Part shown: one piece after another, positions 6,451-60,584 of the stretch | Position numbering within the stretch: the first letter of the stretch is position 1 | How the letters are laid out: each line of letters starts with the position of its first letter | Source of the DNA: Cryptosporangium aurantiacum | GTDB lineage: Bacteria; Actinomycetota; Actinomycetes; Mycobacteriales; Cryptosporangiaceae | Assembly: GCF_900143005.1 (NCBI RefSeq) | Contig: NZ_FRCS01000009.1 | Coordinates: forward strand, 186,001-250,000 | Direction: 5' to 3' | Length of the DNA: 64,000 bases | Position numbers and translations under genes: made by a program | Notes under the pieces: generated by a model | What the model was told of the DNA's origin: nothing | Seen by the model: the letters and a program-made list of their open reading frames with translations, nothing else | Databases searched by the model: none

Positions 6451-6468
6451 TAATAACAAGCCCAGACG
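6451..6468 (+). repeat. Intergenic 18-bp element, copy 1
   Basis: TAATAACAAGCCCAGACG, a one-base variant of the element found again at 11439, 11921, 59147 and 60567. It lies between the unknown gene and the receiver gene starting at 6545, in the orientation of both. A -10-like TACAGT follows at about 6497. Confidence 0.75.
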
Positions 6469-6544
6469 CCCCTGTCTCTCCGCCCCCGAGGAATCGCTAC
6501 AGTGGCGCATACCTGACATTCCGCTCATATCCCTGGGGGCTGCG

Positions 6545-7705
6545 GTGGGGCAGCGGATCCTGTTGGTGGACGACGAGCCCGGTGTGCTCGACGGCCTCCG
6601 CCGCCAGCTGGCGAGCCGTTACACGGTCGAAGCCGTGCTGTCCGGTGCCGAGGGGCTGAAGAAGCTCGACCACAGCCGCGGCAGTTCGAACCCGTTCGCG
6701 GTGGTCGTCTCGGACATGATGATGCCGGAGATGGACGGCGCCGAATTCCTCGGCCGGGCCGCCGTGATCGCGCCGGACGCCGTCCTGATGGTGCTGTCGG
6801 GCAAGGCCGACCTGCGCTCGACGATCTCCGCGGTCAACACCGGCCGGCTGTTCCGGTTCATCCCCAAACCCTGCAGCCCGCGCGACCTGCAGGCGGCGAT
6901 CGACGCCGCGCTGGTGCACTACCGGCGGTCGAAGTCCGAGGGCGACCTGCTGGAGAAGACGCTCGCCGGGTCGGTGAAGGTACTCGCCCAGGCCCTCGCG
7001 ATGGCCAGCCCGGAGACCGGGGCCCGGATCACCACGATCACCGAGCTGGTCGGCGGCGCGGCCCGCCGGATGGGCCAGAGCAACAGCTGGGAGCTGCGGA
7101 TGGCGGCGCGGCTCAGCCAGCTCGGACTGGTGTCGATCCCGCCGGACGTGCTGCAGCGGGTCGAGGGCGGTATCGAGGGCAGCGCGGGGGAGAAGGCGAT
7201 GTACCGGGCGCACCCGTCAGTGGCCCGTGACCTGCTGGCCGGCGTCCCGAAGCTGGAGCGGGTGGCCGCCTGGGTCGGCGGTCAGACCGTGGACGCGACC
7301 GCGCCGCCGCCGCGATCGGACCCGGACCCGGATTCGCGGGTCGAGCTGCAGCGCCAGATCTTCCAGGTCGCGGCCGAGTTCCTGGCCGCCAAGGACATCG
7401 GGGAGTGGCCACCGGAGTGCGCGGCCCGGCTGGCCGCGGGCGGCCGGTACCGGCGCGACGTGGTGCAGGCCGTGCTGGAGACCGCGCTGGAGCGGGACGC
7501 GGCGCCGGACGCGCAGTCGGTGACGATCAACCAGCTCGCGGTCGGGATGCGGTTCGTCCGGGACGTGAAGGCGACGACCGGGGCGATCCTGGTGCGGAAG
7601 GGCGACCGGGTCACCGACGCGGTGCGGGTGCGGCTACAGAACTTCAAGACGTACGTGGGTGTGGTGGAGCCGCTGCGCGTCACTCAGCCCAAGGACACGC
7701 TGTGA
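6545..7705 (+). CDS. Response regulator with degenerate HD-GYP-type output domain (paralogue 1)
   Basis: A 386-residue protein. Residues 1-125 are a receiver domain with acidic pair DD at 9-10, phospho-acceptor Asp57 in VVSDMMMPEMDG, and Lys in FRFIPKPCSP. Residues ~140-260 resemble an HD-GYP domain, but the catalytic LHDIGK is replaced by LSQLGL, the early helix histidine is missing and the HHE/GYP region is absent; only AHPSVARDLL survives. A C-terminal segment (LVRKGDRVTDAVRVRLQNF) matches the tail common to such regulators. It is therefore probably not a c-di-GMP phosphodiesterase but a phosphorylation-controlled binding or scaffold protein. GTG start after a TGGGGG site. It is about half identical to the protein at 13094-14227. 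Confidence 0.85.
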   Translation: MGQRILLVDDEPGVLDGLRRQLASRYTVEAVLSGAEGLKKLDHSRGSSNPFAVVVSDMMMPEMDGAEFLGRAAVIAPDAVLMVLSGKADLRSTISAVNTGRLFRFIPKPCSPRDLQAAIDAALVHYRRSKSEGDLLEKTLAGSVKVLAQALAMASPETGARITTITELVGGAARRMGQSNSWELRMAARLSQLGLVSIPPDVLQRVEGGIEGSAGEKAMYRAHPSVARDLLAGVPKLERVAAWVGGQTVDATAPPPRSDPDPDSRVELQRQIFQVAAEFLAAKDIGEWPPECAARLAAGGRYRRDVVQAVLETALERDAAPDAQSVTINQLAVGMRFVRDVKATTGAILVRKGDRVTDAVRVRLQNFKTYVGVVEPLRVTQPKDTL

Positions 7706-8205
7706 TCGCGGCCGGTCAGAGCTGCCGCGGCGTAGGGATCGATGCTGGTGCCGGGGTGCAGTCCGAGCAGGGTGAGGAAACGGCGGCGGGCCGCGGGCAG
7801 GTAGCGCACCGACACGTCGAACGCGGCAGCGACGCTGTTCTGCTCGGCGAACAGGCGCAGCACGCTGTCGCGGGTCTCGGCGATCAGGTCGGCCACGGTC
7901 CAGGAGGGGTGCTCGGTGTAGACGCGGGCGATGATCGCGATCGCCAGCGGCAGCCGTCCGCAGAGTTCGACCAGTTCCTCGACCGCGGAGGGCTCGTCGA
8001 TCGCGCGTTCGGCCGCCACGACGAACATGTCCCGGGCATCGTCGGCGGGGAGTTGATCCGGGCGCAACGACGCGGTCCCACCGGGTAGATCGCCGCGTCG
8101 GCGGCGGCTGGTGATCAGGGTCAGGCACGCAGGGTTGCCGGGGAGCAGCGGTGTCACCTGGTCGGTGCCGGCAGCGTTGTCGAGCGTCGGTGGATGGTCT
8201 ATCGG
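7684..8205 (-). pseudogene. Remnant of an AfsR/STAND-type regulator (NB-ARC fragment)
   Basis: The minus-strand frame holds ~170 residues matching the middle of an NB-ARC domain from actinobacterial SARP/AfsR regulators. LDNAAGTDQVTPLLPG marks the Walker B strand region, LITSRRRR the sensor, LCGRLPLAIAII the GxP motif, and LLGLHPGTSIDPYAAAALTG the arm domain. The Walker A loop and the DNA-binding N-terminus are missing, and the frame stops right after the arm with no repeats. Further upstream the same frame only runs antiparallel to the neighbouring pentapeptide gene. I read it as a decayed gene trimmed at both ends. Its stop overlaps the convergent response regulator end by 22 bp. Confidence 0.7.
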
Positions 8206-8272
8206 CCGCCCGGGCCATGAGGACGGTCGGGTGGTTCGGTGGGCGTGCCGCGCGCCGGTCCGCGATCGCGGG

Positions 8273-9235: not shown

Positions 9236-9239
9236 TCGG

Positions 9240-11378: not shown

Positions 11379-11438
11379 CGTCCTCCCGTCGTCGAAAGGC
11401 GGATCGGGTCCATTCTGCCGACCCGCACCCTGGATCAG

Positions 11439-11456
11439 TAATAACAAGCCCATACG
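11439..11456 (+). repeat. Intergenic 18-bp element, copy 2
   Basis: TAATAACAAGCCCATACG in the gap between the divergent AfsR/SARP (start 11378) and ankyrin (start 11526) genes, oriented with the ankyrin gene. The bases that follow, CAAACACACACCC, resemble those following copies 4 and 5, so conservation extends past the 18-bp core. Confidence 0.8.
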
Positions 11457-11525
11457 CAAACACACACCCAACCACCACAAGGGCAGGCTGACGACGGGTG
11501 GGGGAGCCCGCCTAAGGTGGCTTCC

Positions 11526-11915: not shown

Positions 11916-11920
11916 CCACG

Positions 11921-11938
11921 TAGTAACAAGCCCATACG
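11921..11938 (+). repeat. Intergenic 18-bp element, copy 3
   Basis: TAGTAACAAGCCCATACG, one mismatch from the consensus, 5 bp after the ankyrin stop and ~114 bp before the malate dehydrogenase start. A probable -10 box (TAGCGT, about 12013) for malate dehydrogenase lies further downstream, so the element is not itself the core promoter. Confidence 0.8.
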
Positions 11939-12030
11939 TCATAACGCACAACCCAAAGACGCAAACGTCACACCCACGGGACCGGTCCCTCCCTCGGGAG
12001 TGGGGCAGGGGTAGCGTCGTCAGGCGGTAA

Positions 12031-13038
<1,008 letters not shown>

Positions 13039-13053
13039 GTTTCGTTCGTCCGG

Positions 13054-13090
13054 AAGGGCGGCGGTCCCCTGGTGGGGGTCGCCGCCCTTT
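13054..13090 (+). terminator. Intrinsic terminator after mdh
   Basis: Stem AAGGGCGGCG ... CGCCGCCCTTT with additional GTCCCC/GGGGGT pairing and a short loop, ending in TTT. Because the stem is flanked by A and T runs it can act on both strands, and it also lies 4 bp from the end of the convergent response regulator gene. Confidence 0.85.
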
Positions 13091-13093
13091 GGG

Positions 13094-14227
13094 TTATTGG
13101 GGGTCGGTGACGCGGATGGGTTCGTTGACGCCGACGCTGGTGGCGAAGTTGGTGAGGCGGATTTTGACGGCTTCGGTGACGGTGTCGCCTTTGCGGACGA
13201 GGACGGTGCCGGTGGTGGCGAGGACGTCGTGTTGGAAGACCTGGCCGAGGCGGAGGTCGCGGACGGTGAGTTCGCGGATTTCGCCTTGGGTGGTGGCGAC
13301 GGTGGTGGCGGCGTGGAGTACGGCTTGGATGACGTCGGGTCGGTGGCGGCAGGTGCCGGTGAGTCGGCGGGCGGTGGCGGTGGGTTCTTCGGCGTTCTGG
13401 CGGGCGGCGACGAATTTGGTGGCGACGGCGAGGACGTCGATGCATTGGGCTTCTTCGTCGTCGGCGGCGGGGTGGTCGCCGTCGGAGTTTTGGAGGGAGA
13501 TCCAGCGGGCGACGCGTTCCATGCGGGGGATGCGGATGAGTAGGTCGTGGGCGACTTGGGGGTGGGTGGCGTACATGGTGGTTTCGTCGGGGGTGGGGTT
13601 GGCGCCGGTTTCGACGCGTTCGACGACGTCGGGTGGGATGGCGACGAGTCCGATTTGGCTGAGTTTGGCGGCGGCGCGGAGTTCCCAGACGTGGCCGAGG
13701 CGGAGGGTGCGGGCGGCGGTGTCGGTGATGCGGCTGGTGCGGGTGGTGCGGCTGTAGGCGTCGGGGTTGCCGAGGGAGAGGAGTTGGGCGAGGACGTCGA
13801 CGGAGCCGGCGAGGGTTTTCTGGAGGAGTTCGCGTTCGGCGTGGACGAGTTGGTATTGGCGGAGGGCGTCGTCGATGGAGCTGCGGAGTCCGTGGGGGCT
13901 GCAGGGTTTGGCGATGAAGCGGAAGAGGCTGCTCTCGTTGACGGCGGCGATGGTGGAGGGGAGGTCGGCTTGGCCGGAGAGGATCATGAGGACGGCGTCG
14001 GGGGTGATTTCGTGGGCTTTGGCGAGGAATTGGGCGCCGTTCATTTGCGGCATCATCATGTCGGAGACGATGACTGCGAAGGGGTCGGTGCTGTGGCGGT
14101 TGTGTTCGAGGATGGCGATGCCATCGGCGCCGGAGAGTGCGGTTTCGATCGTGTAGTGGCTGGCGAGGTTGCGGCGGACGCCGTCGAGGACGCGTGGTTC
14201 GTCGTCGACCATGAGGATTCGTGCCAT
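13094..14227 (-). CDS. Response regulator with degenerate HD-GYP-type output domain (paralogue 2)
   Basis: A 377-residue paralogue of the 6545-7705 protein with the same layout. The receiver domain has Asp56 in VIVSDMMMPQMNG and Lys in FRFIAKPCSP. The output domain reads LSQIGLVAIPPDVVERV where active HD-GYP enzymes have LHDIGK, and keeps only the ATHPQVAHDLL histidine. The tail TTGTVLVRKGDTVTEAVKIRLTNF is shared. It is probably a non-catalytic signalling output. It is divergent from the histidine kinase at 14342, 114 bp away. Its codons end almost always in C or A rather than G, unlike the paralogue, which matches the strong plus-strand G excess of this stretch. Confidence 0.85.
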   Translation of the reverse strand: MARILMVDDEPRVLDGVRRNLASHYTIETALSGADGIAILEHNRHSTDPFAVIVSDMMMPQMNGAQFLAKAHEITPDAVLMILSGQADLPSTIAAVNESSLFRFIAKPCSPHGLRSSIDDALRQYQLVHAERELLQKTLAGSVDVLAQLLSLGNPDAYSRTTRTSRITDTAARTLRLGHVWELRAAAKLSQIGLVAIPPDVVERVETGANPTPDETTMYATHPQVAHDLLIRIPRMERVARWISLQNSDGDHPAADDEEAQCIDVLAVATKFVAARQNAEEPTATARRLTGTCRHRPDVIQAVLHAATTVATTQGEIRELTVRDLRLGQVFQHDVLATTGTVLVRKGDTVTEAVKIRLTNFATSVGVNEPIRVTDPQ

Positions 14228-14341
14228 GGTTCGTCTACCAGCCTTGTCCGGTTAATTCCCTTTACGCCACTTTAGCCGTATCTTAGGCGAAAGCGTTCGC
14301 CGCTGGGACACCCGCCGGACGCCGGGCACGGGAGGCTGGCG

Positions 14342-16075
14342 ATGGGCGAGCTGGGGCAACCCGCCGACGCGGCGCCGATGGTGCCCTCGGCGGAGGCCAT
14401 GCGGCGTCTGGGCGCCAACGCGCTGCGCTCTCCGCTGGGGCTGGCGCTCGCCGACGCCGAGGGCCGGATCGAGTGGATGAACCCCGCGTTCAGCCAGGCG
14501 ACCGGAGTCAGCCCGGCCGACGCGGTCGGGCGGCATCCGCTCGACCTGCTGCTACCCCGCGCGTCGTTCCCCCCGGACGAGGTGGAGCGGCTGCGCCGCG
14601 AGGTGGCCTCCGGGGGCCGCCTGGACCTGGAGTACGACACCGAGACCAGGGACGGACGCCCCTACAGCGTCAGCCTGCGGATGGGCCCGGGTACCGGGTC
14701 CGACACCGGCGAGTACTTCGTGATCCTCACCGAGGACATCACCGAGCGGCGGCGCAGCGCCGAGGAGGCGCAGCGGATCGCCGAGCGCGCGGAGGCGGTC
14801 GCCCACGAGCTGCACACCGAGCGGGAGCTGCTGGCCAGCGTGCTGTCCACGATCCCGCACGTGGTGTTCTGGAAGGACACCGAGCACCGCTACCTGGGCT
14901 GCAACGAGCCCTACGCGCGGCTGCGCGGCCTGGGAAGCGAGAAGGACCTGGTCGGCAAGCGGGAAGGGGAGCTGGACCAGGACGAGCTGGGGCTGCTGAT
15001 CGCACAGATCGAGGGGCACGTGCTCGACAGCGGTACCCCGGTGGTCGACCAGACGGTGACCGTGACGAGCCCGGACGGGCCGGCGCAGGTGCTGCTGCTC
15101 AGTGTCCTGCCCCGGCACGCGGAGGCGAGCACCCCCGGCGGGGTGATCGGGGTCGGGGCCGACGTCACCCGGATCACCGCGCTGGAACGCCAGCTGGCGC
15201 AGGCCACCCGGCTGGAGTCGATCGGCCAGCTGGCCGCGGGCCTGGCGCACGAGATCAACACGCCGGTGCAGTACGTCTCGGACAACGTGCTGTTCCTGGC
15301 CGACTCGTTCACCGACGTGCTGGAGGCGCTGCGGTCGATCGCGAACGTGGCGCGCGGCGCCGAGCAGGATCCCCGCGGGGACGCGCCGGCGCCGTCGGTG
15401 GACGATCTGCGGGCCCGGCTGTCACTGCTGGTGGACGGGCTGGACCTGGACTTCCTCGGCACCGAGATCCCCAGCGCGCTCGAGCAGACCCTGGAAGGGG
15501 TGGGCCGGGTCGCGGAGATCGTCCGGGCGATGAAGGAGTTCTCCCACCCGGGGCAGGGCCGCACCGACACCGATCTCAACCGGGCGGTGGAGTCGACCGT
15601 GCAGGTGTCGCGCAACGAGTGGAAATACGTGGCCCACATGGAGATGGAGCTGGATCCGGCGGTGGGTCTGGTGCCCTGTTACGAGGGAGAGCTCAAACAG
15701 GTGGTGCTGAACCTGATCGTCAACGCCGCGCACGCGATCGCCGAGCAGCAGGCGCGCCGCGGGGAGCAGGAGCAGGGGCGGATCGGGATCAGTACCCGGC
15801 GGGTCGGTGATTCGGTCCAGATCGCGGTGAGCGATACCGGCACCGGGATGGACGAGGCGACGCGGATGCGGATCTTCGACCCGTTCTTCACCACGAAGGA
15901 AGTCGGGAAGGGCACCGGGCAAGGGCTGGCGATGGCGCACAGCTGTGTGGTGGGCAAGCACGGCGGGTCGATCGAGGTCGACTCGGTGGTCGGCGAGGGG
16001 ACGACGTTCCGGCTGATCCTGCCGGGGACGGTGGATCAGCCGGATCCGGGGCCGGATCCGATGGCGGGGTGGTGA
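14342..16075 (+). CDS. Double-PAS soluble sensor histidine kinase
   Basis: A 577-residue kinase without membrane segments. PAS domain 1 spans ~25-135 (ending ILTEDITERRRSAEE), a coiled coil ~136-165, and PAS domain 2 ~166-280 (VFWKDTEHRYLGCNEPYARL). The phospho-acceptor His303 is in LAAGLAHEINTPVQYVSDN, typical of NtrB/HPK4-like kinases. ATP-binding motifs are N-box LNLIVNAAHAI, G1 VSDTGTGMDE, F-box FDPFFTTKEVGKGTGQGLAMAHS. It probably senses a cytoplasmic signal. GGGAGG precedes the ATG. The receiver-HDOD gene starts 4 bp after its stop and is the obvious phosphotransfer partner; the divergent receiver gene may be another. Confidence 0.92.
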   Translation: MGELGQPADAAPMVPSAEAMRRLGANALRSPLGLALADAEGRIEWMNPAFSQATGVSPADAVGRHPLDLLLPRASFPPDEVERLRREVASGGRLDLEYDTETRDGRPYSVSLRMGPGTGSDTGEYFVILTEDITERRRSAEEAQRIAERAEAVAHELHTERELLASVLSTIPHVVFWKDTEHRYLGCNEPYARLRGLGSEKDLVGKREGELDQDELGLLIAQIEGHVLDSGTPVVDQTVTVTSPDGPAQVLLLSVLPRHAEASTPGGVIGVGADVTRITALERQLAQATRLESIGQLAAGLAHEINTPVQYVSDNVLFLADSFTDVLEALRSIANVARGAEQDPRGDAPAPSVDDLRARLSLLVDGLDLDFLGTEIPSALEQTLEGVGRVAEIVRAMKEFSHPGQGRTDTDLNRAVESTVQVSRNEWKYVAHMEMELDPAVGLVPCYEGELKQVVLNLIVNAAHAIAEQQARRGEQEQGRIGISTRRVGDSVQIAVSDTGTGMDEATRMRIFDPFFTTKEVGKGTGQGLAMAHSCVVGKHGGSIEVDSVVGEGTTFRLILPGTVDQPDPGPDPMAGW

Positions 16076-16079
16076 GCGC

Positions 16080-17276
16080 GTGCTGCGGGTGATGTTCATC
16101 GACGACGAGCCGAACATCCTGTCGGGGCTGCGGCGGATGCTGCGCACCCAGCGCGGTGAGTGGGACATGCAGTTCGCCAACTCGGGCGCGGAGGGGCTGG
16201 CGCTGATGGCCGAGCAGCCGGTCGACGTCCTGGTGTGCGACATGCGGATGCCGGGGATGGACGGGGTCCAGGTGATGGCCGCGGTGCGGGAGCGGCACCC
16301 GTCCACGGCGCGGATCATCCTGACCGGGCAGACCGATCGGGAGTCGGTGATCGCCGCGCTCGGGCTGACCCAGCGGTTCCTGCTCAAGCCGTGCCGCCCG
16401 GAGGATCTGGTGGCGGCGATCGAGCAGGTGGTGGCGGTGCGGCAGGCCGTCACCGAGGGGCAGATCCAGGCGTTTCTGGGGTCGGTGCATTCCTTGCCGC
16501 GGCCACCCGCGGTGTACACGCAGATCGTGGAGATGGCCGCGCGGCCGGACTGCGACGTGGCGGATCTGGTCCAGATCATCGAGCACGACATCGCGACGGC
16601 CACCGAGGTGCTCAAGCTGGTGAACTCCGGGGTGTTCTGTTCGCCGCACCCGGTGGACACGCTCGCGGGTGCGGTGGTGCTGCTGGGGTTCGACGCGATT
16701 CAGGCGCTGGCGCTGGCCAGTTCGGCGTTGCGGTCGGACGTGCCGACGCCGGAGAGCTTCGATCTGGACGCGTTGGCGCACTACAGCATGGTGGTGGCGG
16801 CGATGTGCCGGAAGATCGCGGCGGGTGAGGGTGCGGACCGCAACGGCGTCAGCGCCGCATTCCTGTCCGGTTTGTTGCACAGTGTCGGGTTGTTGGTGCA
16901 GGTGGGGGCGAACCCGCGGGGCTGGGACGTGGTCCGTGCGGGGTGCCGGGATCCGTGGGCGCAGGCCGAGGCGGAGGTGCAGGTGTTCGGCTGCACCTCG
17001 ACGCAGGCCAGCGCGTACCTGCTGGGCTTGTGGGGGTTCGCCGAGCCGATCGTCCACACGGTGCTGGAGCAGCCGGTGCGGCCGGGCGATCCGGTGGCCA
17101 CCCCGGCGGCGCACACGCTGGCGTACGCGCGGATGCGGGCGGGCTACCCGGCGACCGAGGTGGTGCCCGGGACGTACCTGACGGAAGTGCGGCTGGCGCG
17201 CTGGGACGAGTGGTGCGCGGACCTCAAGGAGGACCTGGCGACCGTGGTCTGGCCCCCCGTTCCGGTTCCCCGATAA
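16080..17276 (+). CDS. Response regulator with HDOD output domain
   Basis: A 398-residue protein. Residues 1-120 form a receiver with Asp54 in VLVCDMRMPGMDG and Lys in RFLLKPCRPED. Residues ~135-335 form an HDOD domain (SLPRPPAVYTQIVEMAA, VVLLGFDAIQALALASS), a non-enzymatic relative of HD phosphohydrolases that acts in signal relay. The GTG start lies 4 bp after the histidine kinase stop, so the two genes form a classic two-component operon. With the two degenerate HD-GYP paralogues nearby this makes three receivers around one kinase. A small inverted repeat (ATAATG-TG-CATTAT) overlaps the stop. Confidence 0.9.
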   Translation: MLRVMFIDDEPNILSGLRRMLRTQRGEWDMQFANSGAEGLALMAEQPVDVLVCDMRMPGMDGVQVMAAVRERHPSTARIILTGQTDRESVIAALGLTQRFLLKPCRPEDLVAAIEQVVAVRQAVTEGQIQAFLGSVHSLPRPPAVYTQIVEMAARPDCDVADLVQIIEHDIATATEVLKLVNSGVFCSPHPVDTLAGAVVLLGFDAIQALALASSALRSDVPTPESFDLDALAHYSMVVAAMCRKIAAGEGADRNGVSAAFLSGLLHSVGLLVQVGANPRGWDVVRAGCRDPWAQAEAEVQVFGCTSTQASAYLLGLWGFAEPIVHTVLEQPVRPGDPVATPAAHTLAYARMRAGYPATEVVPGTYLTEVRLARWDEWCADLKEDLATVVWPPVPVPR

Positions 17277-17314
17277 TGTGCATTATGTAAAGTAGGGGTT
17301 CGGGAGGGTCTCCC

Positions 17315-17965
17315 TCAGGCGGCCACGGCGACGGCTTTCGAGCGTTCGGTGGCGAGCTTGACCGCGAGCCCCGCGAGCACGGTGCCCATCAGGTACCGCT
17401 GGATCTTCAGCCAGGTCGGGCGGGCGCCGAGGAACGTGGCGATCGCGCCGGCGGAGACGACGATCAGCGCGTTGACGGTGAGTGCGACGGCGATCTGGAC
17501 GCTGCCCAGCGTGAGGCTCTGCAGCGCGACGTGGCCGAGTGCCGGGTCGACGAACTGCGGCAGCAGCGAGATGTAGAGGATCGCGATCTTGGGGTTGAGC
17601 AGGTTGGTGACCAGTCCCATCGTGAACAGCCGGCGGGCGGGGTCGGGTGGCAGCGGCGCGGGGTCGAACACGTTGGCGCCGCCGGGGCGCAGGGTCTGCC
17701 AGGCGAGGTAGAGCAGGTAGGCGGCGCCGGCGAGTTTGATCGCGGTGTAGAGCGCGGGGACGACGGTGAAGATCGCGACGAGCCCGGCGGTGGCCGCGGT
17801 GAGGTAGACGAGGAATCCGGCCGCGACGCCGGTGAGTGAGACCAGTCCGGCGCGGCGGCCCTGGGTGAGGGTGCGGGAGACCAGGTAGATCATGTTCGGG
17901 CCGGGGGTCAGGACGAGCCCGAGGGCGACGGCGGCGATGCCGAGTAGCGCGCCGGTGGTGATCAC
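17315..17965 (-). CDS. LysE/RhtB-family amino-acid exporter
   Basis: A 216-residue membrane protein with six predicted helices and the family signature PGPNMIYLVSRTLTQGRRAGLVSL near the N-terminus and NLLNPKIAILYISLLPQF in the middle. The family exports amino acids or related small molecules across the plasma membrane. It starts at GTG 17965 after an AGGAGG ribosome site. It is convergent with the receiver-HDOD gene. An inverted repeat upstream at 18032-18056 may be its operator. Confidence 0.9.
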   Translation of the reverse strand: MITTGALLGIAAVALGLVLTPGPNMIYLVSRTLTQGRRAGLVSLTGVAAGFLVYLTAATAGLVAIFTVVPALYTAIKLAGAAYLLYLAWQTLRPGGANVFDPAPLPPDPARRLFTMGLVTNLLNPKIAILYISLLPQFVDPALGHVALQSLTLGSVQIAVALTVNALIVVSAGAIATFLGARPTWLKIQRYLMGTVLAGLAVKLATERSKAVAVAA

Positions 17966-18031
17966 GGGGCCTCCTGGTGCGGTGGTGCGGTTCTCCCCCG
18001 TCAGCCAACCGGAGCGGGCGCGGCGATCGCC

Positions 18032-18056
18032 AGTCCATTTCGCCCGGTAGTGGACT
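18032..18056. promoter_or_regulatory. Inverted repeat upstream of the LysE-family gene
   Basis: AGTCCA (18032-18037) and TGGACT (18051-18056) form a perfect 6-bp inverted repeat with 13 bp between arms. It lies 67 bp before the LysE start, in the gap after the acetyltransferase gene. It could be an operator; a weak hairpin is the alternative. A GGCCACCCCCCGC direct duplication follows at about 18077-18103. Confidence 0.35.
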
Positions 18057-18112
18057 CGATGAACCCGACGGGGTCAGCGCGGCCACCCCCCGCGGCCACC
18101 CCCCGCGGCCAC

Positions 18113-19348: not shown

Positions 19349-19395
19349 CTCACCAGTTGTACAGTCCGGTAACGGCGGGCGGTGCTGCTCGTCGC

Positions 19396-20154: not shown

Positions 20155-20200
20155 GCACTCCAGCATGCCCTGCCGCCCACAGAGCGCGGCGCAGAGAGCA

Positions 20201-20272: not shown

Positions 20273-20288
20273 GGGGTTTCTCAGGCGG

Positions 20289-21565: not shown

Positions 21566-21569
21566 CCCG

Positions 21570-48347: not shown

Positions 48348-48369
48348 CCCGCTAACCCCGAGGAGTCCG

Positions 48370-53189: not shown

Positions 53190-53193
53190 CGCG

Positions 53194-53880: not shown

Positions 53881-53883
53881 TCC

Positions 53884-54372
53884 TCAGCCCTCCGTCGTGA
53901 GTGCGGTGGTTTCGGCCAGCGCGCGGCGCAGCGTCACCCGGCCCCGGGACAGCCAGGATTTGACGGTGCCTTCGGGGACGCCGGCGTCGGCGGCGATCTC
54001 GGCGACCGACAGGTCGGCGACGTGGCGCAGCACCACCGCGCGCCGCTGGTCGGGTGGTAACGCGGCGAGCGCCCGCACCAGATCGACGGTCTCTCCGCCG
54101 TCCTGGCCGGTCGGCGGTGCGGCCAGCGCGGCCCGGTGCGCGAGCGCGGTGCGGGCCCGCCGCCACCGGCTGACCGCCAGCCGCCACGCGACCCGCCGCA
54201 CCCACCCGGCCGGGTCGTCGTAGGCGCGCACCTGGTCCCAGCGTTCCCAGGCGCGGCAGAACGCCTCCTGGGTGAGGTCGTTGGCGTCGGCGGCCGCCCC
54301 GAAGTACGCGTAGAGCTGGACGCTGATCGGCCGGAAATGCGCGGCGTAGAACGCGTCGAACTGCTCCTCCAC
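53884..54372 (-). CDS. SigE-family ECF RNA polymerase sigma factor
   Basis: A 162-residue sigma-70 factor of the actinobacterial SigE-type ECF group. Region 2 is FDAFYAAHFRPISVQLYAYFG and ANDLTQEAFCRAWERWDQVR...AGWVRRVAWRLAVSRWRR; region 4 is LAALPPDQRRAVVLRHVADLSVAEIAADAGVPEGTVKSWLSRGR. It directs RNA polymerase to a specific promoter set, probably in an envelope stress response. It is the first gene of a two-gene operon with the membrane protein downstream. Confidence 0.92.
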   Translation of the reverse strand: MEEQFDAFYAAHFRPISVQLYAYFGAAADANDLTQEAFCRAWERWDQVRAYDDPAGWVRRVAWRLAVSRWRRARTALAHRAALAAPPTGQDGGETVDLVRALAALPPDQRRAVVLRHVADLSVAEIAADAGVPEGTVKSWLSRGRVTLRRALAETTALTTEG

Positions 54373-54492
54373 AGCGCGTTCCTTCCGCGTTGCCGGTGAC
54401 CGATGCCCACTACACGCCGGCCGGCCCGCCCGGGTTGCGTCAGGTGGCGCGTTCCCGTGCGACGAGCGCCTCGATGCCGTCGAGCAGCCGGA

Positions 54493-55464
54493 TCAGGACG
54501 CGAGCCAGGCCGCGATCCCGGCGCGCAGGCGCTCCTTCGTGGACGCCGGCGCGAACGACGCGTCCACCCCGGCCATGGCCAGCCGCGCCAGCTCCGCATC
54601 CGTCGCCCCGAACACCTCCCGCACGCGCGCGTACTCCCCGGTCAGCGTCGCCCCGATCACCGCCGGGACATCCGTGTTCAGCGTCACGGCCAGGCCCGCC
54701 TCGACCAGCGCCGGCAGCGGATGCTCCGCCCAGGAACGCACCAGCCCCAGCGCCACGTTCGATGACGGGCACACCTCCAGCGGCACACCCCCGTCCCGCA
54801 CCGCGGCCACCAGCTCCGGATCCTCAAGGATCCGGATGCCGTGCCCGAGCCGCTCGGCGTGCCCGGCCGTCAACGCCTCCCGAATCGACGCCGCGCCGCA
54901 CGCCTCCCCGGCGTGATGCACCAGGTGCAGCCCGGCGTCCCGGGCCTCGTCGCACACCGCGGCGAACGGCGCCAGCGGGTAACTCTCCTCACCGGCGACG
55001 CCCACGCCCACGACGTCCGCAGACGATTGGGCCAGGGCCAGTGACGCGCGGAACCGGCCGACCGGCCGGCGGCGGGAATGATCCAGCAGGACCCGCACCT
55101 CGATGCCGTGCGCGGCCTGGCCGGCCTTCAGGCCGGCCAGGACCGCCTCCAGGGGCATCCGCGGATCACCCAGACGCTCCCCGTGGGACGCCGCGGTGAA
55201 CGTCACCTCCACAGAGCCGACGCCCTGCGCGGCCTCATCGGCGCAGAACTCCTCGGCCACCCGGGTGAAGTCCTCCGGCTCACGCAGGCAACTACGCACC
55301 AGCGCACCGTGGTCGGCGAACGCCCGGAACCCGTCGAACCGGCCACCCGGGGCCGGCAGCGTCACCCCGTGGGCGGCGGCGAGCTCGGCGAGGGTACCCG
55401 GACGCAGCGTGCTCTCCAGGTGGACGTGCAGGTGGGCCTTGGGCAGCAGGGTCAGATCGCGCAC
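54493..55464 (-). CDS. Adenosine deaminase-like amidohydrolase with altered Asp pair
   Basis: A 323-residue metal-dependent deaminase. Zinc ligands are HLHVHLE near the start, His in LVHHAGEACGA and Asp in TLNTDVPAV; catalytic His is in RLGHGIRI. Classical adenosine deaminases read NTDDP here, with the second Asp contacting the purine; this protein has Val, so its substrate may be a modified purine nucleoside such as an aminodeoxyfutalosine-type compound. GTG 55464 is chosen at the first beta strand. It is followed, upstream on the same strand, by the isochorismatase-family gene with 11 bp between. Confidence 0.87.
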   Translation of the reverse strand: MRDLTLLPKAHLHVHLESTLRPGTLAELAAAHGVTLPAPGGRFDGFRAFADHGALVRSCLREPEDFTRVAEEFCADEAAQGVGSVEVTFTAASHGERLGDPRMPLEAVLAGLKAGQAAHGIEVRVLLDHSRRRPVGRFRASLALAQSSADVVGVGVAGEESYPLAPFAAVCDEARDAGLHLVHHAGEACGAASIREALTAGHAERLGHGIRILEDPELVAAVRDGGVPLEVCPSSNVALGLVRSWAEHPLPALVEAGLAVTLNTDVPAVIGATLTGEYARVREVFGATDAELARLAMAGVDASFAPASTKERLRAGIAAWLAS

Positions 55465-55475
55465 GTCGCCAGACC

Positions 55476-56060
55476 CTACGAGCCGCCCTCCGCCACCAGC
55501 GACCGGATTTCCGCCGTGGTGGCCTGCTGCCCGAGGATCCGGAACACCCAGGACGTCGTCAGCGCGTGCGCGTCCGGGTTGACGTCGGTGACCGCGTCCG
55601 AGGCGATCACCACCGAATAGCCGTGCGCGTACGCCTCCCGGGCCGAGGTGTCCACCCCGATGCTCGTCGCCACCCCGGCCAGCACCACCTGGGTGACGCC
55701 CCGGCGCCGCAGCCGCAGGTCCAGGTCGGTGCCGTGAAACGCGCCCCACGTGCGTTTGGTGACCCGCAGATCCTCCGGGTGACCGTCCAGCTCCGCGACC
55801 AGGTCCTCGAACCCCGCCGGCAGCTCACCACCACCGGACCCGAACTCCGTCCGGCCGGGCGGGGCGTCCGGGCCGGTCAGCGACGTGTTGGTGACCAGCA
55901 CCACCGGTTTGCCCGCCGCGCGGAACGCCGCCGCCAGCTGCGCGGTGTTCGCCACCACCTCCGGCCCGGGCAGCGGCCCGAGACCGGGCCGGCCGACGGT
56001 GCCGTTCTGCAGATCGATGACGACCAGCGCGACGCGCGGGTCCAGGTCGGTCAGCGGCAT
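55476..56060 (-). CDS. Isochorismatase-fold protein lacking the catalytic cysteine
   Basis: A 194-residue isochorismatase-fold protein. The triad Asp (VVIDLQNG) and Lys (VTKRTWGAF) are present. Where family enzymes have Cys (as in TEQCC in the homologue at 4269), this one reads GVATSIGVDTSAREAY, with Gly in the nucleophile place. It is therefore unlikely to be a normal amidohydrolase; a different reaction or a binding role is possible. It stands between MarR and adenosine deaminase genes, all on the minus strand, and is probably co-transcribed with them. Confidence 0.82.
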   Translation of the reverse strand: MPLTDLDPRVALVVIDLQNGTVGRPGLGPLPGPEVVANTAQLAAAFRAAGKPVVLVTNTSLTGPDAPPGRTEFGSGGGELPAGFEDLVAELDGHPEDLRVTKRTWGAFHGTDLDLRLRRRGVTQVVLAGVATSIGVDTSAREAYAHGYSVVIASDAVTDVNPDAHALTTSWVFRILGQQATTAEIRSLVAEGGS

Positions 56061-56082
56061 GAAGAGCCTTTCGCTCGGCGGG

Positions 56083-56520
56083 TCACGGGCGCGCCGCCCG
56101 CTCCAGGAGGGCCATCGCCGCGATCACCGTGCGCCGCTCGTCCTCGGTGAGCCGCTCGTGCAAGGCCTGCACCAGCCACTCCTCCCGCGCCACCCGGTTG
56201 CCCTCGTGCCACGCCCGGCCCGCGCCGGTCAGCGACACCACCTGCCGCCGCCCGTCGTCGGGGTCGGGGTCACGGCGGATCAGGCCCTGGGTGTCGAGGA
56301 CCGCGAGGGTCGCGGCCATCGACTGCGGCCGCACCCCCTCCTTCGCCGCCAGCGCGCTCGCCGACGCCGGGCCGTCCTTGCCCAGCACGGTCAGGACCGA
56401 CGCCTGCGACGGCGTCAGCCCCCGGATGTCGGACACGTCCCGCCAGCGGCGCCGCAGACGGCTGAACGCCACCTGGACGTCCCGGGCGGCACGGACCGCG
56501 GAACCCTCCACGCCGCTCAC
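56083..56520 (-). CDS. MarR-family transcriptional regulator
   Basis: A 145-residue MarR protein. The winged helix is LTPSQASVLTVLGKDGPASASALAAKEGVRPQSMAATLAVLDTQGLIRRDPDPDDGRRQVVSLT in pieces (key SALAAKEGVRPQSMAATL and DPDDGRRQVVSLT wing). It starts with GTG 56520. A long inverted repeat immediately upstream (56529-56560) is its likely operator. It heads the three-gene group with the isochorismatase-fold and deaminase genes and may respond to their substrate. Confidence 0.92.
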   Translation of the reverse strand: MSGVEGSAVRAARDVQVAFSRLRRRWRDVSDIRGLTPSQASVLTVLGKDGPASASALAAKEGVRPQSMAATLAVLDTQGLIRRDPDPDDGRRQVVSLTGAGRAWHEGNRVAREEWLVQALHERLTEDERRTVIAAMALLERAARP

Positions 56521-56528
56521 CGTAAAAC

Positions 56529-56560
56529 CATCAGGTGAAACTGACCAGTCTTACCTGATG
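56529..56560. promoter_or_regulatory. MarR operator at the end of the DUF4180 gene
   Basis: CATCAGGT (56529-56536) and ACCTGATG (56553-56560) are perfect outer arms; inside, ACTG-AC-CAGT (56540-56549) is a second inverted repeat on the same centre. The 32-bp element ends 9 bp from the MarR start and overlaps the last codons of the upstream DUF4180 gene. Confidence 0.72.
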
Positions 56561-56895
56561 AATTCACCGAGGCGTTCCTCCAGCGCCGCCTCGTCCGGCA
56601 CGAACCACAACTGCCGGCCACGGTTGCTCTCCCGCACAAAATCCCGCAACGCCTCACTGGCCGCCACATAGCGGCTGATGTCACCCACCACCGCCAGACC
56701 CAGCCGGTAGTTCGCGAACTTCTGCACCACCGCACCGGCCACCCCCGACCGCAACCGGAAGAACTCCGGCCCCAGCCGCTCCACCGGCACCACCACCCAC
56801 TCCGCACGCTCCGCGAACGCATCCCCGATCAGGTCCATCACCGCCCGCTCGTCACCCAGAACCGCACCCTCGGCGTCCACCCGCAACAACTGCAC
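56551..56895 (-). CDS. DUF4180-domain protein
   Basis: A 114-residue protein of the DUF4180 family: DLIGDAFAERAEWVVVPVERLGPEFFRLRSGVAGAVVQKFANYRLGLAVVGDIS is the family core (key EWVVVPVERLGPEFF and QKFANYRLGLAVVGD). Function is unknown; no signal peptide or membrane segment. GTG 56895 is 1 bp after the stop of the HTH gene, so the two are an operon. The family recurs next to DNA-binding proteins, which hints at a regulatory partner role. Confidence 0.85.
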   Translation of the reverse strand: MQLLRVDAEGAVLGDERAVMDLIGDAFAERAEWVVVPVERLGPEFFRLRSGVAGAVVQKFANYRLGLAVVGDISRYVAASEALRDFVRESNRGRQLWFVPDEAALEERLGEFIR

Positions 56896-56896
56896 C

Positions 56897-57325
56897 TCAG
56901 CCCACCTCTCCCGACAACGCCTCGATCAGCCGCAGCAACTCCGCCGTCCGGCCCACCGACCCGAACACCACCACCCGCAGGCTCCGGCGCTCCTCGTCGT
57001 ACACCGTCTGCACCCGCAGCGGCCCACCGCCCGCCGCGCCCTGATCTGCCGCGCTCTGACCCGCCGCCGCCAGCACCAGCGTCGAGAACCGGCTCATCCC
57101 CGCCGCGTCGACGCCGTCGATCTGCACCACCGCCGACACCTCGACATGCGCAGCCACCGCCGGCGCCGGGCGACCCGTGAACGCCTCCAGATCCGCCGCC
57201 GCGACCCGGTACTGACGCCCGATCCGCGACGCCGGCAACCGGCCCTCCCGCACGTACCCGCGCACCGTCTTCACGTGCAGACCCAGCAGCTCCGCCACTT
57301 GCTCCACGGAGTACCACTCCCTCAT
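56897..57325 (-). CDS. Excisionase-type HTH protein upstream of DUF4180
   Basis: A 142-residue protein. Residues 1-55 are an excisionase/MerR-like winged helix-turn-helix: WYSVEQVAELLGLHVKTVRGYVREGRLPASRIGRQYRVAAADLEAF in parts (VEQVAELLGLHVKTVRGYV, then RIGRQYRV). The remainder is an alpha/beta domain (VQIDGVDAAGMSRFSTLVL, VVVFGSVGRTAELLRLIEAL) of unknown type. The ATG follows GGGAGG directly. A 15-bp palindrome overlaps this ribosome site, so the protein may repress its own translation or transcription. Confidence 0.8.
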   Translation of the reverse strand: MREWYSVEQVAELLGLHVKTVRGYVREGRLPASRIGRQYRVAAADLEAFTGRPAPAVAAHVEVSAVVQIDGVDAAGMSRFSTLVLAAAGQSAADQGAAGGGPLRVQTVYDEERRSLRVVVFGSVGRTAELLRLIEALSGEVG

Positions 57326-57327
57326 CC

Positions 57328-57342
57328 TCCCTTTATAAGGGA
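57328..57342. promoter_or_regulatory. 15-bp palindrome overlapping the HTH gene ribosome site
   Basis: TCCCTT-TAT-AAGGGA is a perfect inverted repeat starting 3 bp from the start codon of the HTH gene. AGGGAAG recurs just beyond it. Binding would block transcription start or ribosome access. Confidence 0.6.
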
Positions 57343-57413
57343 AGAACAGGGAAGGATAAAGCCAATAAGCGCCCGGCTCGCGCACCAGAGTATGACCGAG
57401 TTACCCTGAGAGT

Positions 57414-57668
57414 GTGACCAAGCGGATCACCATCAGCGTCCCCGACGACGTCGCCGCCCACCTCGAAGGCGTCGGCGCCCGCCGCGTCTCCGGCTACGTC
57501 ACCGACGCCATCCGCCACCTCGTCCGCCGCGAAGAACAACTCCGCCAACTCGACGAAGTCTTCGCACGCACCGGCAACCCCCAGGCCCCCGACCGCGAAC
57601 GCGCCGAACGCTTCCTCGACGACGTCGCCGCCTGGCAATCAACCCAGCGCAGCGGCCAACGCGCGTGA
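57414..57668 (+). CDS. Antitoxin-like CopG/ribbon-helix-helix protein
   Basis: An 84-residue protein beginning TKRITISVPDDVAAHLEG, a typical ribbon-helix-helix strand and helix, then VSGYVTDAIRHLVRREEQL and a charged C-terminal helix that would bind the toxin. GTG 57414 has TACCCT exactly six bases upstream, so the operon message seems leaderless. Its stop overlaps the toxin GTG (GTGA). It probably autorepresses. Confidence 0.8.
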   Translation: MTKRITISVPDDVAAHLEGVGARRVSGYVTDAIRHLVRREEQLRQLDEVFARTGNPQAPDRERAERFLDDVAAWQSTQRSGQRA

Positions 57669-58114
57669 CCGCCGCGGAAGCGCGAACCCTCAGCCAGGTC
57701 GGACTCGTCTTCGACCACCACCCGCTGACCGCCTACGCCACCAGCAAAGACCTCATCGCACCCTCACTCGTCGCCTCCGTACTCGAACGCGGCCAAGCCA
57801 TCGCCGTCAGCCCCCTCGTCCTCGCCGAGGCCTACTGCGGGTTAGACCACAGCGAAGCCGACGTCCTCGACCTCCTCACCGGCGGAGCACTCGCCGCCGC
57901 CCTCATCGTCGAACCCTTCGACGGCGACACCGCACGCCTCCTCGGACGCGACTCCGCACCCACCCTCGGCAACACCGGCGGAGGCCACCGCCCCACCCTC
58001 GCCACCCTCCACACCGCGCAACTCGCCGTCCGCCACGCCGCCGGCGTCGTCACCGGCGAACCCGCACCCCTGCGCGCGCTCCTCGGCCCCGACTGGCCCG
58101 TCCTCGAGGTCTGA
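57665..58114 (+). CDS. PIN-like toxin of a VapBC-type pair
   Basis: A 149-residue protein with a PIN-like outline: a first strand with Asp (GLVFDHHPLTAYATS), the helix Glu in LVLAEAYCGLD, and a late helix ATLHTAQLAVRHAAGVVTGE. PIN RNases use three to four acidic residues; here the late position reads His-Thr where Asp is usual, so activity is uncertain. The gene is coupled to the antitoxin by a 4-bp overlap. Codons end almost only in C or A. Confidence 0.68.
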   Translation: MTAAEARTLSQVGLVFDHHPLTAYATSKDLIAPSLVASVLERGQAIAVSPLVLAEAYCGLDHSEADVLDLLTGGALAAALIVEPFDGDTARLLGRDSAPTLGNTGGGHRPTLATLHTAQLAVRHAAGVVTGEPAPLRALLGPDWPVLEV

Positions 58115-58195
58115 CACCGCCAACAATCGAAAGCGCCCGGACACCCCGGCCAAAACCCGCCAGAACCCGCACCCCAGCACCCCTACCGTCGACCC

Positions 58196-59110
58196 GTGAC
58201 CGCAACGACCCAACCACGCGCCGACCAAACCACCACCAACCTGCGCACCCTCGGCGCCGTCAGCTTCACCGTCGCCGCCTGGGCCTCCGCCTTCATCGGC
58301 ATCCGCTGGGTCGGCGAACACTACACCGCAGGCCCCCTCGCCTTCGGCCGCCTCCTCGTCGGCACCCTCGCACTCGGCGCCGCCCTCGCCGCCACCCGCC
58401 GCTGGGTACCCCCCACCCGCCGCGAATGGGCACTCATCCTGCTCTGCGGCATCGCCTGGTTCGGCATCTACAACGTCGCCCTCAACGACGCCGAACGCCG
58501 CGTCGACGCCGGCACCGCCGCCATGCTCGTCAACCTCGGCCCCATCCTCATCGCCCTGTTCGCCGGACTCCTGCTCCGCGAAGGCTTCCCCCGCTGGCTC
58601 CTCATCGGCGCCGCCGTCGCCTTCACCGGCGTCATCCTCATCGGCGTCCCCTCCGCCCGCCAGAGCGACGCCGACGCCCTCGGGGTCGCACTCTGCCTCG
58701 TCGCCGCCGTCACCTACGCCATCGGCGTCCTCGCCCAGAAACCCACCCTCCGGCGCCTCCCCGCCCTCCAAGTCACCTGGCTCGCCTGCACCATCGGAAC
58801 CCTCACCTGCGTCCCCTACGCACCCGGTTTCGCCCGCGAACTCACCGACAGCCCTACCGGAGCCACCGCAGGCCTCGTGTACCTCGGACTCGTCCCGACC
58901 GCACTGGCCTTCGGCACCTGGGCCTACGCACTCAGCCGCATGGACGCCGGACGACTCGGCATCACCACCTACGTCGTCCCGCCGCTCGCCGTCCTCGGCG
59001 GATGGGCACTCCTCGGCGAAACACCGGCCGCGCTCGCGCTCGTCGGCGGAGCCGTGTGCCTGGCCGGCGTGGCCCTGTCCCGCCGCCGCGAAAAGGTCAG
59101 TGCCGCGTAG
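58196..59110 (+). CDS. EamA/DMT-family transporter
   Basis: A 304-residue protein with ten predicted membrane helices in two EamA repeats (~20-145 and ~160-295). Motifs are FTVAAWASAFIGIRWVGEHY, NVALNDAERRVDAGTAAMLVNLGPIL and TYVVPPLAVLGGWALLGE. The family exports metabolites, often amino acids. GTG 58196 has TACCGT exactly six bases upstream. It is convergent with the LCP gene, and the fourth 18-bp element lies between them. Confidence 0.9.
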   Translation: MTATTQPRADQTTTNLRTLGAVSFTVAAWASAFIGIRWVGEHYTAGPLAFGRLLVGTLALGAALAATRRWVPPTRREWALILLCGIAWFGIYNVALNDAERRVDAGTAAMLVNLGPILIALFAGLLLREGFPRWLLIGAAVAFTGVILIGVPSARQSDADALGVALCLVAAVTYAIGVLAQKPTLRRLPALQVTWLACTIGTLTCVPYAPGFARELTDSPTGATAGLVYLGLVPTALAFGTWAYALSRMDAGRLGITTYVVPPLAVLGGWALLGETPAALALVGGAVCLAGVALSRRREKVSAA

Positions 59111-59146
59111 GTCGCGTTGTGGCTTGTTCGAGCGGGTGTGTTCGTC

Positions 59147-59164
59147 CGTATGGGCTTGTTATTA
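59147..59164 (-). repeat. Intergenic 18-bp element, copy 4
   Basis: TAATAACAAGCCCATACG on the minus strand, an exact match to copy 2, followed on that strand by GACGAACACACCC, which resembles the extension after copy 2. It lies between the convergent EamA and LCP stops, 12 bp beyond the LCP gene. Confidence 0.8.
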
Positions 59165-59176
59165 CGAGTACGGGAC

Positions 59177-60505
59177 TCAGCTCGCCGGGGTCACCCAGGT
59201 CGGGTTGGCCTGCACGAACGCGTCCACCGTGTCGTTGTTCATCGCCCGGAACAGCTCGAGGCTCGTGTCGCTGAGCTTCTCGTACCAGATGCCGTTGACC
59301 GTCTCGGCGTTGAACTTGCCACCGTTGGTCTTGATCATCGTCATCTGGTCGGGCTTGATCCCCTTGAGCGTGAACACCCAGTCGGTGATCGGCACGTTGT
59401 TGTTGTAGAACGTGACGGCCTCCCCGACGGAGTTCAGCAGGTCGTTGATCTTCGCCGGGTTCGTGATCACACCCGACGACGTCGCCTTCTGCAGGATCGC
59501 CTTGATCAGCTGCTGCTGGTGCCGCTGACGACCGTAGTCACCGTCGTTGTTGGCGAGCAGATCACGCTGCCGGGCGTAGTCCAGCGCCTGCCAGTCCTTG
59601 AAGTCGTGACAGCCCGGGTAGTACACCTGCGGCCGCATGTTCTCCCGCAGCCCGGCCGGCGTGCCGTCGTCGTTGATGTAGTACGGAACCCCGACCTTGC
59701 CGGTCGTCTTGTCCCATCCGATGTGAATCGACGTGACCTTCTCGTCGACGCACATCCGGACGCCGCCCAGCGCGCGGACCACACCGCGGAGCCCCTCGAA
59801 GTTCACGATCGCCGCGCCGTCGAACTTCATGCCGCCGGCCAGGTCGCTGACCGTGTTCGCGACCAGCTCCATCCCCTTCTCGCGGCCGCCACCGGAGCGG
59901 AACCCGTACTGGAACGCGGCGTTGATCTTGTCCCTGCCGCCGGGGTACTGCGTGTCCGGGAACTCCGGGATGTCCACCAAGCTGTCCCGCGGGATCGACG
60001 CCAGGTAGACCTTGTCGTGCGCCGCGTTGATGTGCGCCACGATGATCGAATCGGCGCGGACGTTGTCCGGAGCGTCGGGCCGCTCGTCGGTGCCGATCAG
60101 CAGCAGGTTGATCGGGCCCTCGATCGAGTTGCCGGTGTCGGCGGAGTCGCCGAGCCCGCCGTCCTCGGTGATCTTGCCCGCGTAGTGGTCGACCGCGGCG
60201 GGGACGACGACCAGCATGCCGGCGCTGAACAGAACGAGGACCGTGCCGAGCGCGATCGCCAGCCAGGTCCAGCGCGGGGCGCCGCGCCACGTCCCGGTCT
60301 GCCGCGGACGGATCGGGGGTGGAGGGCTGTCGGGCTGTGGTTCCGCTCGCGGTCTCGGATCGTCGTCGACGCGCTCCGGCGAGCCCAGGCTACTCAGGGT
60401 TCCACCCGGACGTACCGCCGACGCATCAGCTACCTCACTTTCCCGGCCGTTCCCGGCTACCTTCTCCGATCGCGGAGCTATCTGACCGGATAACCGCGCA
60501 AACAC
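59177..60505 (-). CDS. LytR-CpsA-Psr (LCP) family cell-wall glycopolymer ligase
   Basis: A 442-residue LCP protein. Residues ~1-78 are a Pro-rich cytoplasmic tail, ~79-103 one membrane helix, and the rest the extracellular LCP domain: LLLIGTDER, ADSIIVAHINAAHDKVYLASIPRDSLVDIP, GRDKINAAF and DYARQRDLL with the Arg residues that bind pyrophosphate. LCP enzymes attach polymers such as teichoic acid or arabinogalactan to peptidoglycan. GTG 60505 has AAGGA about ten bases upstream; no other start precedes the membrane helix. The gene is bracketed by element copies 4 and 5, both in gene orientation. Confidence 0.9.
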   Translation of the reverse strand: MFARLSGQIAPRSEKVAGNGRESEVADASAVRPGGTLSSLGSPERVDDDPRPRAEPQPDSPPPPIRPRQTGTWRGAPRWTWLAIALGTVLVLFSAGMLVVVPAAVDHYAGKITEDGGLGDSADTGNSIEGPINLLLIGTDERPDAPDNVRADSIIVAHINAAHDKVYLASIPRDSLVDIPEFPDTQYPGGRDKINAAFQYGFRSGGGREKGMELVANTVSDLAGGMKFDGAAIVNFEGLRGVVRALGGVRMCVDEKVTSIHIGWDKTTGKVGVPYYINDDGTPAGLRENMRPQVYYPGCHDFKDWQALDYARQRDLLANNDGDYGRQRHQQQLIKAILQKATSSGVITNPAKINDLLNSVGEAVTFYNNNVPITDWVFTLKGIKPDQMTMIKTNGGKFNAETVNGIWYEKLSDTSLELFRAMNNDTVDAFVQANPTWVTPAS

Positions 60506-60566
60506 TCATTCAATCCTTAACCGATCCCCCGGTGCGGGGTGTAGTTGGGGGTGGCATGTGTTCGCG

Positions 60567-60584
60567 TGTATGGGCTTGTTATTT
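60567..60584 (-). repeat. Intergenic 18-bp element, copy 5
   Basis: On the minus strand AATAACAAGCCCATACAC, 62 bp upstream of the LCP start and in its orientation, then GCGAACACATGCCACC, again similar to the extension after copies 2 and 4. The 270-bp LCP/VOC gap also holds a nine-codon GTG ORF near 60668 and a CCCCG/CGGGG hairpin at about 60731-60750, neither convincing. Confidence 0.75.

What the first reader, a model, noticed from the sequence alone, without database searches (positions are those of the whole stretch)
6451..60584. Five-copy intergenic element TAATAACAAGCCCATACG of unknown role
Exact or one- to two-base variants occur at 6451, 11439, 11921 (plus strand) and 59147, 60567 (minus strand), always between genes. 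The element is AT-rich against a very GC-rich background. In three copies conservation extends a further ~15 bases as (G/C)(A)AACACA(C/T)CC. Four copies point toward the start codon of the next gene, 62-114 bp away: a receiver protein, ankyrin protein, malate dehydrogenase and LCP ligase. Recognisable -10 boxes lie further downstream, so it is not the core promoter. It matches no DnaA box, parS or regulator site I know.
Basis: seen in the sequence. Interest (0 to 1): 0.78.

Follow-up and report, generated by a model that had tools for sequence, protein, structure and literature searches.

The report
Replication fork trap without known protein
A short repeated DNA signpost that points toward the place where chromosome copying ends looks like a one-way barrier that keeps the copying machinery from running past the finish line, in a group of bacteria in which the known proteins for that job were not found.

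Summary
The five copies are real. They belong to a sharp set of 9-13 copies per genome (up to 1 mismatch) in all four genus members held, with 1 of 196 other relatives showing two stray 1-mismatch hits. They are not gene-regulatory. In single-contig genome G002 (9.196 Mb) all 13 copies point at dif, which lies opposite dnaA. The window is that terminus: dif at 17271, three + copies to its left, two - copies to its right. Inner copies are conserved at orthologous places while flanks diverge. The innermost opposed copies, C (11921) and D (59147), bound zones of intense strand-asymmetric composition: in 720 kb of G002 the two largest steps lie 284 and 343 bp from C and D. In 11 of 14 non-motif genomes examined a comparable step sits at or near dif instead. 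Best reading: polar Ter-type sites forming a 47-54 kb replication fork trap. Tus and RTP were not detected, so the terminator protein is unknown and this is probably a third, independent fork trap. Protein binding and fork arrest are inferred. A separate abundant octamer, CGGGGGAG, fits the FtsK-guide role, against the main rival.

The parts
6451..6468 (+). Ter-like site A (TAATAACAAGCCCAGACG), outer member on the left side, no downstream extension
   Evidence: orthologous copy in G001, G002, G003
11439..11469 (+). Ter-like site B: core 11439-11456 plus extension at about 11461-11469
11921..11951 (+). Ter-like site C, innermost left site: core 11921-11938 plus extension at about 11943-11951
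11995..20000 (+). zone of G/T excess on the + strand just inside site C (GC skew up to about +0.31 in 2-kb windows), fading inward; right edge approximate
17271..17291 (+). dif-like XerC/XerD site CGATAATGTGCATTATGTAAA in a convergent gap
   Evidence: same site in G001, G002, G003
46119..47210 (+). tyrosine recombinase (363 aa), conserved at the same place in all four genus members; speculative candidate for a terminus protein, no evidence that it binds the sites
54000..58990 (-). mirror zone of G/T excess on the - strand just inside site D (GC skew down to about -0.31 in 2-kb windows); left edge approximate
59134..59164 (-). Ter-like site D, innermost right site: core 59147-59164 plus extension at about 59134-59142
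60554..60584 (-). Ter-like site E: core 60567-60584 plus extension at about 60554-60562

Best explanation
The element is a polar replication-terminator (Ter-type) site. A sequence-specific protein, not yet identified, is proposed to bind the asymmetric 16-17 bp core AATAACAAGCCCANACR. Forks travelling from origin to terminus pass; forks that have crossed the terminus and travel back toward the origin are stopped. Innermost sites C (11921) and D (59147), backed by B, A and E, enclose a trap of about 47 kb holding dif. Most fork fusions would then happen at C or D, leaving a strand-asymmetric mutation footprint just inside each. SHOWN: the copies, their polarity about dif, dif opposite dnaA, orthologous conservation, and compositional steps at C and D. 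INFERRED: protein binding, fork arrest, its direction, and the cause of the footprint.
For: (1) 13 of 13 copies in G002 point at dif, over 35% of the chromosome, 6 of them within 100 kb of dif; dnaA at 1.4 kb of the 9.196 Mb contig, dif at 52.5%. (2) Same convergent arrangement round dif in G000 (5 of 5 in the window), G003 (5 of 5 on contig C40) and G001 (2 beside dif; 2 on another contig, placed by synteny). (3) Sharp set: 13 copies of the invariant 13-mer start in G000, then a gap to chance-like 3-mismatch hits. (4) Core identity 0.92-0.97 against 0.34-0.47 for ungapped +-30 nt flanks at sites A-E in four species. (5) In 720 kb of G002 the two largest 4-kb strand-bias steps of 14,230 positions are 284 bp from C and 343 bp from D; the next largest in size is 0.22 against 0.38 and 0.34. 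GC3 skew reaches 0.6-0.8 in genes of both strands. (6) Top two steps in G000, G002 and G003 are all at C and D, while in 11 of 14 non-motif genomes the strongest or (G075) second step is within 4.1 kb of dif. (7) Arrays this long in one orientation per replichore are only tolerable if they pass origin-to-terminus forks (inference).
Against: No binding protein found: no Tus or RTP at E<=1 in 4 of 4 genomes, and 48 of 62 called window ORFs scanned with Pfam gave no terminator. The 19 outer copies tested show no compositional step (-0.09 to +0.11). The sign of the footprint is opposite to ordinary leading-strand G excess for the fork that would be arrested, so it needs an extra assumption (overrun of the fused fork, or exposed leading-strand template). 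In G000 and G003 the C step lies 0.6-0.9 kb inside C. Two G002 copies (3.108 and 4.680 Mb) lie inside ORFs. Polarity of most outer copies in the draft genomes could not be checked.
Confidence: 0.8

Rival explanations
1. The element guides a DNA translocase (FtsK, KOPS-like) toward dif rather than stopping replication forks.
For: Polarity toward dif and crowding near dif are what KOPS show (KOPS properties recalled).
Against: Only 13 copies in 9.2 Mb, too few to steer FtsK along a chromosome. An unrelated octamer CGGGGGAG is far more abundant and polar (86 toward, 4 away within about 380 kb left and 340 kb right of dif) and fits the KOPS role. Sub-octamers of the element are polar only through the full copies. 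A translocase guide does not explain why compositional steps sit at C and D rather than at dif.
Confidence: 0.07
2. The element is a terminus-domain organiser (matS-like, or an SMC/nucleoid protein site) with no fork arrest.
For: Terminus-centred, protein-site-like, few copies.
Against: It is asymmetric and strictly oriented; MatP/matS sites are palindromic and unoriented (recalled). Does not predict steps at C and D only.
Confidence: 0.06
3. It is a transcription regulator's binding site.
For: Intergenic; four of five window copies face a start codon.
Against: 10 of 12 outer copies face gene ends; neighbours share no function; direction follows the replichore in 13 of 13.
Confidence: 0.03
4. 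Copies are ends or targets of a mobile element that inserts with replication-linked orientation near the terminus (Tn7-like or retroelement-like).
For: Such elements can show replication-oriented, terminus-biased insertion (recalled).
Against: No second end and no shared sequence beyond the element; same orthologous places in four species with diverged flanks; no match in Rfam.
Confidence: 0.02

Closest known systems
Tus/Ter fork trap of Escherichia coli and relatives
   Same: Asymmetric sites (23 bp in E. coli) in two opposed sets enclosing the terminus and dif; sites spread over a large part of the chromosome (about 43% in E. coli per PMC13220808 passages; 35% here); innermost sites look the most used; several outer ones look inert.
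   Different: Core 16-17 bp with a different sequence; no Tus homologue found; no gene was recognised as its terminator; trap about 47-54 kb against the 400-kb terA-terC region cited in PMC10025158.
RTP/ter fork trap of Bacillus subtilis
   Same: Opposed polar sites round dif; sites concentrated near the terminus; several sites beside one another.
   Different: RTP sites are about 32 bp of two imperfect inverted half-sites bound by dimers (PMC13220808, PMC10331603 passages); this core has no inverted symmetry. No RTP homologue found.
KOPS / SRS (FtsK or SpoIIIE orienting octamers)
   Same: Point toward dif.
   Different: Long, rare element; a separate abundant octamer CGGGGGAG fills that description here.
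matS (MatP sites of the Ter macrodomain)
   Same: Terminus-enriched protein-site-like element.
   Different: matS is palindromic and unoriented (recalled); this is asymmetric and oriented.

Membership tests
Replication fork trap (functional class) | Two sets of asymmetric sites of opposite orientation flanking the terminus | tested here: met
   13 of 13 in G002; 5 of 5 in the window; 5 of 5 near dif in G003
Replication fork trap (functional class) | Enclosed region lies opposite the origin and holds dif | tested here: met
   dnaA at 1.4 kb, dif at 4.828 of 9.196 Mb in G002; dif at window 17271 between C and D
Replication fork trap (functional class) | Sites arrest forks from one side only | not testable with these tools
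   Only an indirect footprint: compositional steps at C and D
Replication fork trap (functional class) | A dedicated terminator protein binds the sites | tested here: inconclusive
   Known families absent; unknown protein not found; not all genes could be examined
Tus/Ter | Tus homologue (PF05472) | tested here: not met
   0 of 4 genus genomes at E<=1; the E. coli control rang
RTP/ter | RTP homologue (PF02334) | tested here: not met
   0 of 4 genus genomes at E<=1; the B. subtilis control rang
RTP/ter | Site made of two imperfect inverted half-sites | tested here: not met
   Site logo shows one asymmetric core with an A-rich extension; no inverted repeat covering sites A-E in the three stretches scanned
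KOPS | Short, very abundant octamer skewed toward dif chromosome-wide | tested here: not met
   13 copies in 9.2 Mb; the skewed octamer CGGGGGAG is unrelated
dif site (XerC/XerD) at 17271 | Near-palindromic dif consensus, single, at the terminus, conserved in relatives | tested here: met

The most novel reading that the evidence does not exclude
A third, independently evolved bacterial replication fork trap, in a high-GC Gram-positive genus without Tus or RTP, using an unknown terminator protein. It doubles as a natural experiment: the compositional scar that most related genomes sampled carry at or near dif has moved to the trap boundaries here, suggesting that the scar marks where forks stop or fuse, and that in many actinomycetes without this element forks normally stop at or near dif.
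Probability: 0.6. Interest if true: 0.92.

Novelty: new variant of a known kind. Interest (0 to 1): 0.85.

Why it matters
Only two chromosomal fork-trap systems are described in the reviews whose passages I read (Tus/Ter and RTP/ter; PMC10331603, PMC13220808), and both call fork traps a feature of a small group of bacteria. A third one in another phylum would show that the solution keeps re-evolving and would offer a new polar helicase-stopping protein. The footprint also bears on an open question: PMC3317982 (passages) notes that an unknown termination mechanism near dif remains possible in species without Tus or RTP. Comparing this genus (steps at C and D, none at dif) with relatives (step at or near dif) makes that directly testable by replication profiling.

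Tried and rejected
Promoter or regulator site: rejected on the direction of outer copies. KOPS: rejected. Mobile remnant: rejected. Tus and RTP: no hit. Known RNA: no Rfam hit in the window. Ankyrin protein between B and C as terminator: rejected, because it is widespread (30 of 61 genomes incl. 4 genus members). SARP/BTAD regulator beside B: not found by tblastn in the G003 terminus stretch examined. The two G082 hits: 1 mismatch each, both pointing away from its dif, read as chance. The genome-contig scan gave 12 single exact matches in unrelated organisms (Bacteroidota, CPR, Firmicutes and others), read as chance; the tool said records of the own or very near genomes may be left out. No call named the organism: the 16S search of the own draft found nothing, dif was not found in family mate G004, which is in 550 contigs, and a paper search for my guess from recall (Cryptosporangium) told nothing. 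De novo search for polar 10-mers round dif in G082, G075, G137 and G018 gave nothing comparable, while the same script recovered the element in the window.

Full report
OBSERVATION. The motif occurs five times in the window, at the places and strands given, and 0 times in 100 shuffles. In the whole own genome (G000, 9.58 Mb, 44 contigs) there are 11 copies within 3 mismatches of the 18-mer. A looser search found 13 copies sharing AATAACAAGCCCA or its AG variant, then only four hits at 3 mismatches; the reversed control pattern gave 13 hits in that 3-mismatch search and 0 in the tighter one. So the set is sharp.

DISTRIBUTION. Among 200 relatives (own genome included), copies within 1 mismatch occur in 4 of 4 genus members (11, 9, 13 and 12 copies in G000, G001, G002, G003) and in 1 of 196 others (G082, two 1-mismatch hits). 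In a class-wide draw of 394 genomes the exact core occurs only in the own genome; that draw held no other genus member.

POLARITY. In G002, one contig of 9,195,993 bases, dnaA lies at 1.4 kb and a dif-like site at 4,828,397, 52.5% of the way round. Seven copies left of dif are all on the + strand and six right of it all on the - strand (two-sided sign test 2.4e-4). They span 3.19 Mb (35%); six are within 100 kb of dif. The window is the same region: A 6451, B 11439, C 11921 (+), dif 17271, D 59147, E 60567 (-). G003 has A, B, C, dif, D, E on one contig; G001 has B, C, dif on one contig and D, E on another. Gene order between the sites is largely kept.

CONSERVATION AND ANATOMY. At sites A-E core identity among four species is 0.92-0.97, while ungapped +-30 nt flanks are 0.34-0.47, a figure that indels would lower. 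Across 16 inner (B-E) and 20 outer copies nearly every core position is invariant. Inner copies carry T at position +13 and an extension about AACACRCC at +21 to +29, on the side facing dif, where the fork to be blocked would arrive. Outer copies carry mostly G or A at +13 and no extension. I read the inner form as the strong site (inference).

NOT A GENE SIGNAL. Copies are mostly intergenic: for G002 I count 10 of 13 fully between called ORFs (non-coding fraction 0.114), for G000 9 of 11 (about 0.10). They lie in co-directional, divergent and convergent gaps, and 10 of 12 outer copies face a gene end.

FOOTPRINT. Just inside C the + strand is rich in G and T; just inside D the - strand is. 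In 720 kb of G002, 4-kb GC skew has sd 0.053, yet reaches +0.34 inside D and -0.26 inside C (G002 is inverted relative to the window). Third-position skew there is 0.6-0.8 in genes of either strand, so gene direction is not the cause. A scan of 14,230 positions puts the two largest steps 284 bp from C and 343 bp from D; 19 outer copies show none. Change-points in four genomes lie 74-902 bp from C or D in 8 of 8 cases, within search windows of 3-5 kb on each side. In G000, G002 and G003 the two largest steps in the terminus stretch are all at C and D.

COMPARISON. A dif-like site was found in 21 of 25 other genomes searched; I fetched 14 of the 21. The strongest step is within 1 kb of dif in 7 (G149, G110, G124, G161, G062, G082, G018), at 2.1-4.1 kb in 3 (G089, G068, G054), second strongest at 0.9 kb in 1 (G075), and absent or minor in 3 (G029, G143, G137). 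So what leaves this scar at or near dif elsewhere leaves it at C and D here. The rule fits fork stops: the right side of a stop gains G/T on +, the left side on -. The sign is not that of ordinary leading-strand excess for the arrested fork. It could come from the second fork overrunning the fusion point, as in the completion model (PMC10025158, passages), or from a bared leading-strand template. I cannot choose between these.

KOPS RIVAL. The most dif-ward octamer in the 720 kb is CGGGGGAG (86 toward, 4 away). It is unrelated to the element and turns round in the terminus region; its numbers inside the trap are too small to place the turn exactly.

BINDER. Tus (PF05472) and RTP (PF02334) were not detected in any of the four genomes at E<=1, with controls ringing. 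48 of 62 called window ORFs were scanned with Pfam. The one notable candidate is a tyrosine recombinase at 46119-47210, 73-82% identical at the same place in all four genus members and 35-43% in 4 of 57 others, far below the XerC/XerD cut-offs. It is only a candidate. The ankyrin gene is widespread.

LITERATURE. Passages of PMC8707476, PMC13220808, PMC3317982, PMC3025954 and PMC10025158, and passages plus part 1 of section 5 of PMC10331603, were read. They describe Tus/Ter and RTP/ter, call fork traps rare, and treat them as convergent. Searches listed no paper whose title or abstract start reports a fork trap in actinomycetes; only open-licence papers are held, and I read listings, not every text.

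VERDICT. A polar, terminus-centred, conserved site set with a compositional footprint at its innermost members, best read as a new fork trap with an unknown protein. Arrest itself remains to be shown.

Noticed in passing
G082 L132-L133, G149 L163-L164, G018 L147-L148, G161 L179-L180 and others: In 11 of 14 non-motif genomes examined, strong strand-asymmetric composition (C/A-rich left, G/T-rich right) radiates about 8-12 kb from dif or within 4.1 kb of it; it looks like a scar of fork stopping or fusion at dif.
   Followed up: partly
G018:C1, about 21.5 kb left and 50 kb right of dif (L147, L162 area): G018 shows further steps (0.225 and 0.322) away from dif, which might mark other fork barriers.
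   Followed up: no
G002 C1:4445001-5165000: Octamer CGGGGGAG / GGGGGAGC is strongly oriented toward dif (86:4 and 57:2): a candidate KOPS for this genus.
   Followed up: partly
window 46119-47210 (+): Tyrosine recombinase, not XerC/XerD by model cut-offs, kept at the same place inside the terminus region in all four genus members.
   Followed up: partly
window 6545-7705, 13094-14212, 14342-16075, 16080-17276: Cluster of response regulators with HD or HDOD output domains and a PAS kinase beside dif.
   Followed up: no
window 57665-58114 (+): 149-aa protein without a Pfam or NCBIfam match at 0.001, 88-90% identical in the three relatives, next to site D.
   Followed up: partly
window 8273-9235 (-): Protein with C-terminal pentapeptide-repeat similarity (below model cut-offs) near sites A-C.
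   Followed up: no
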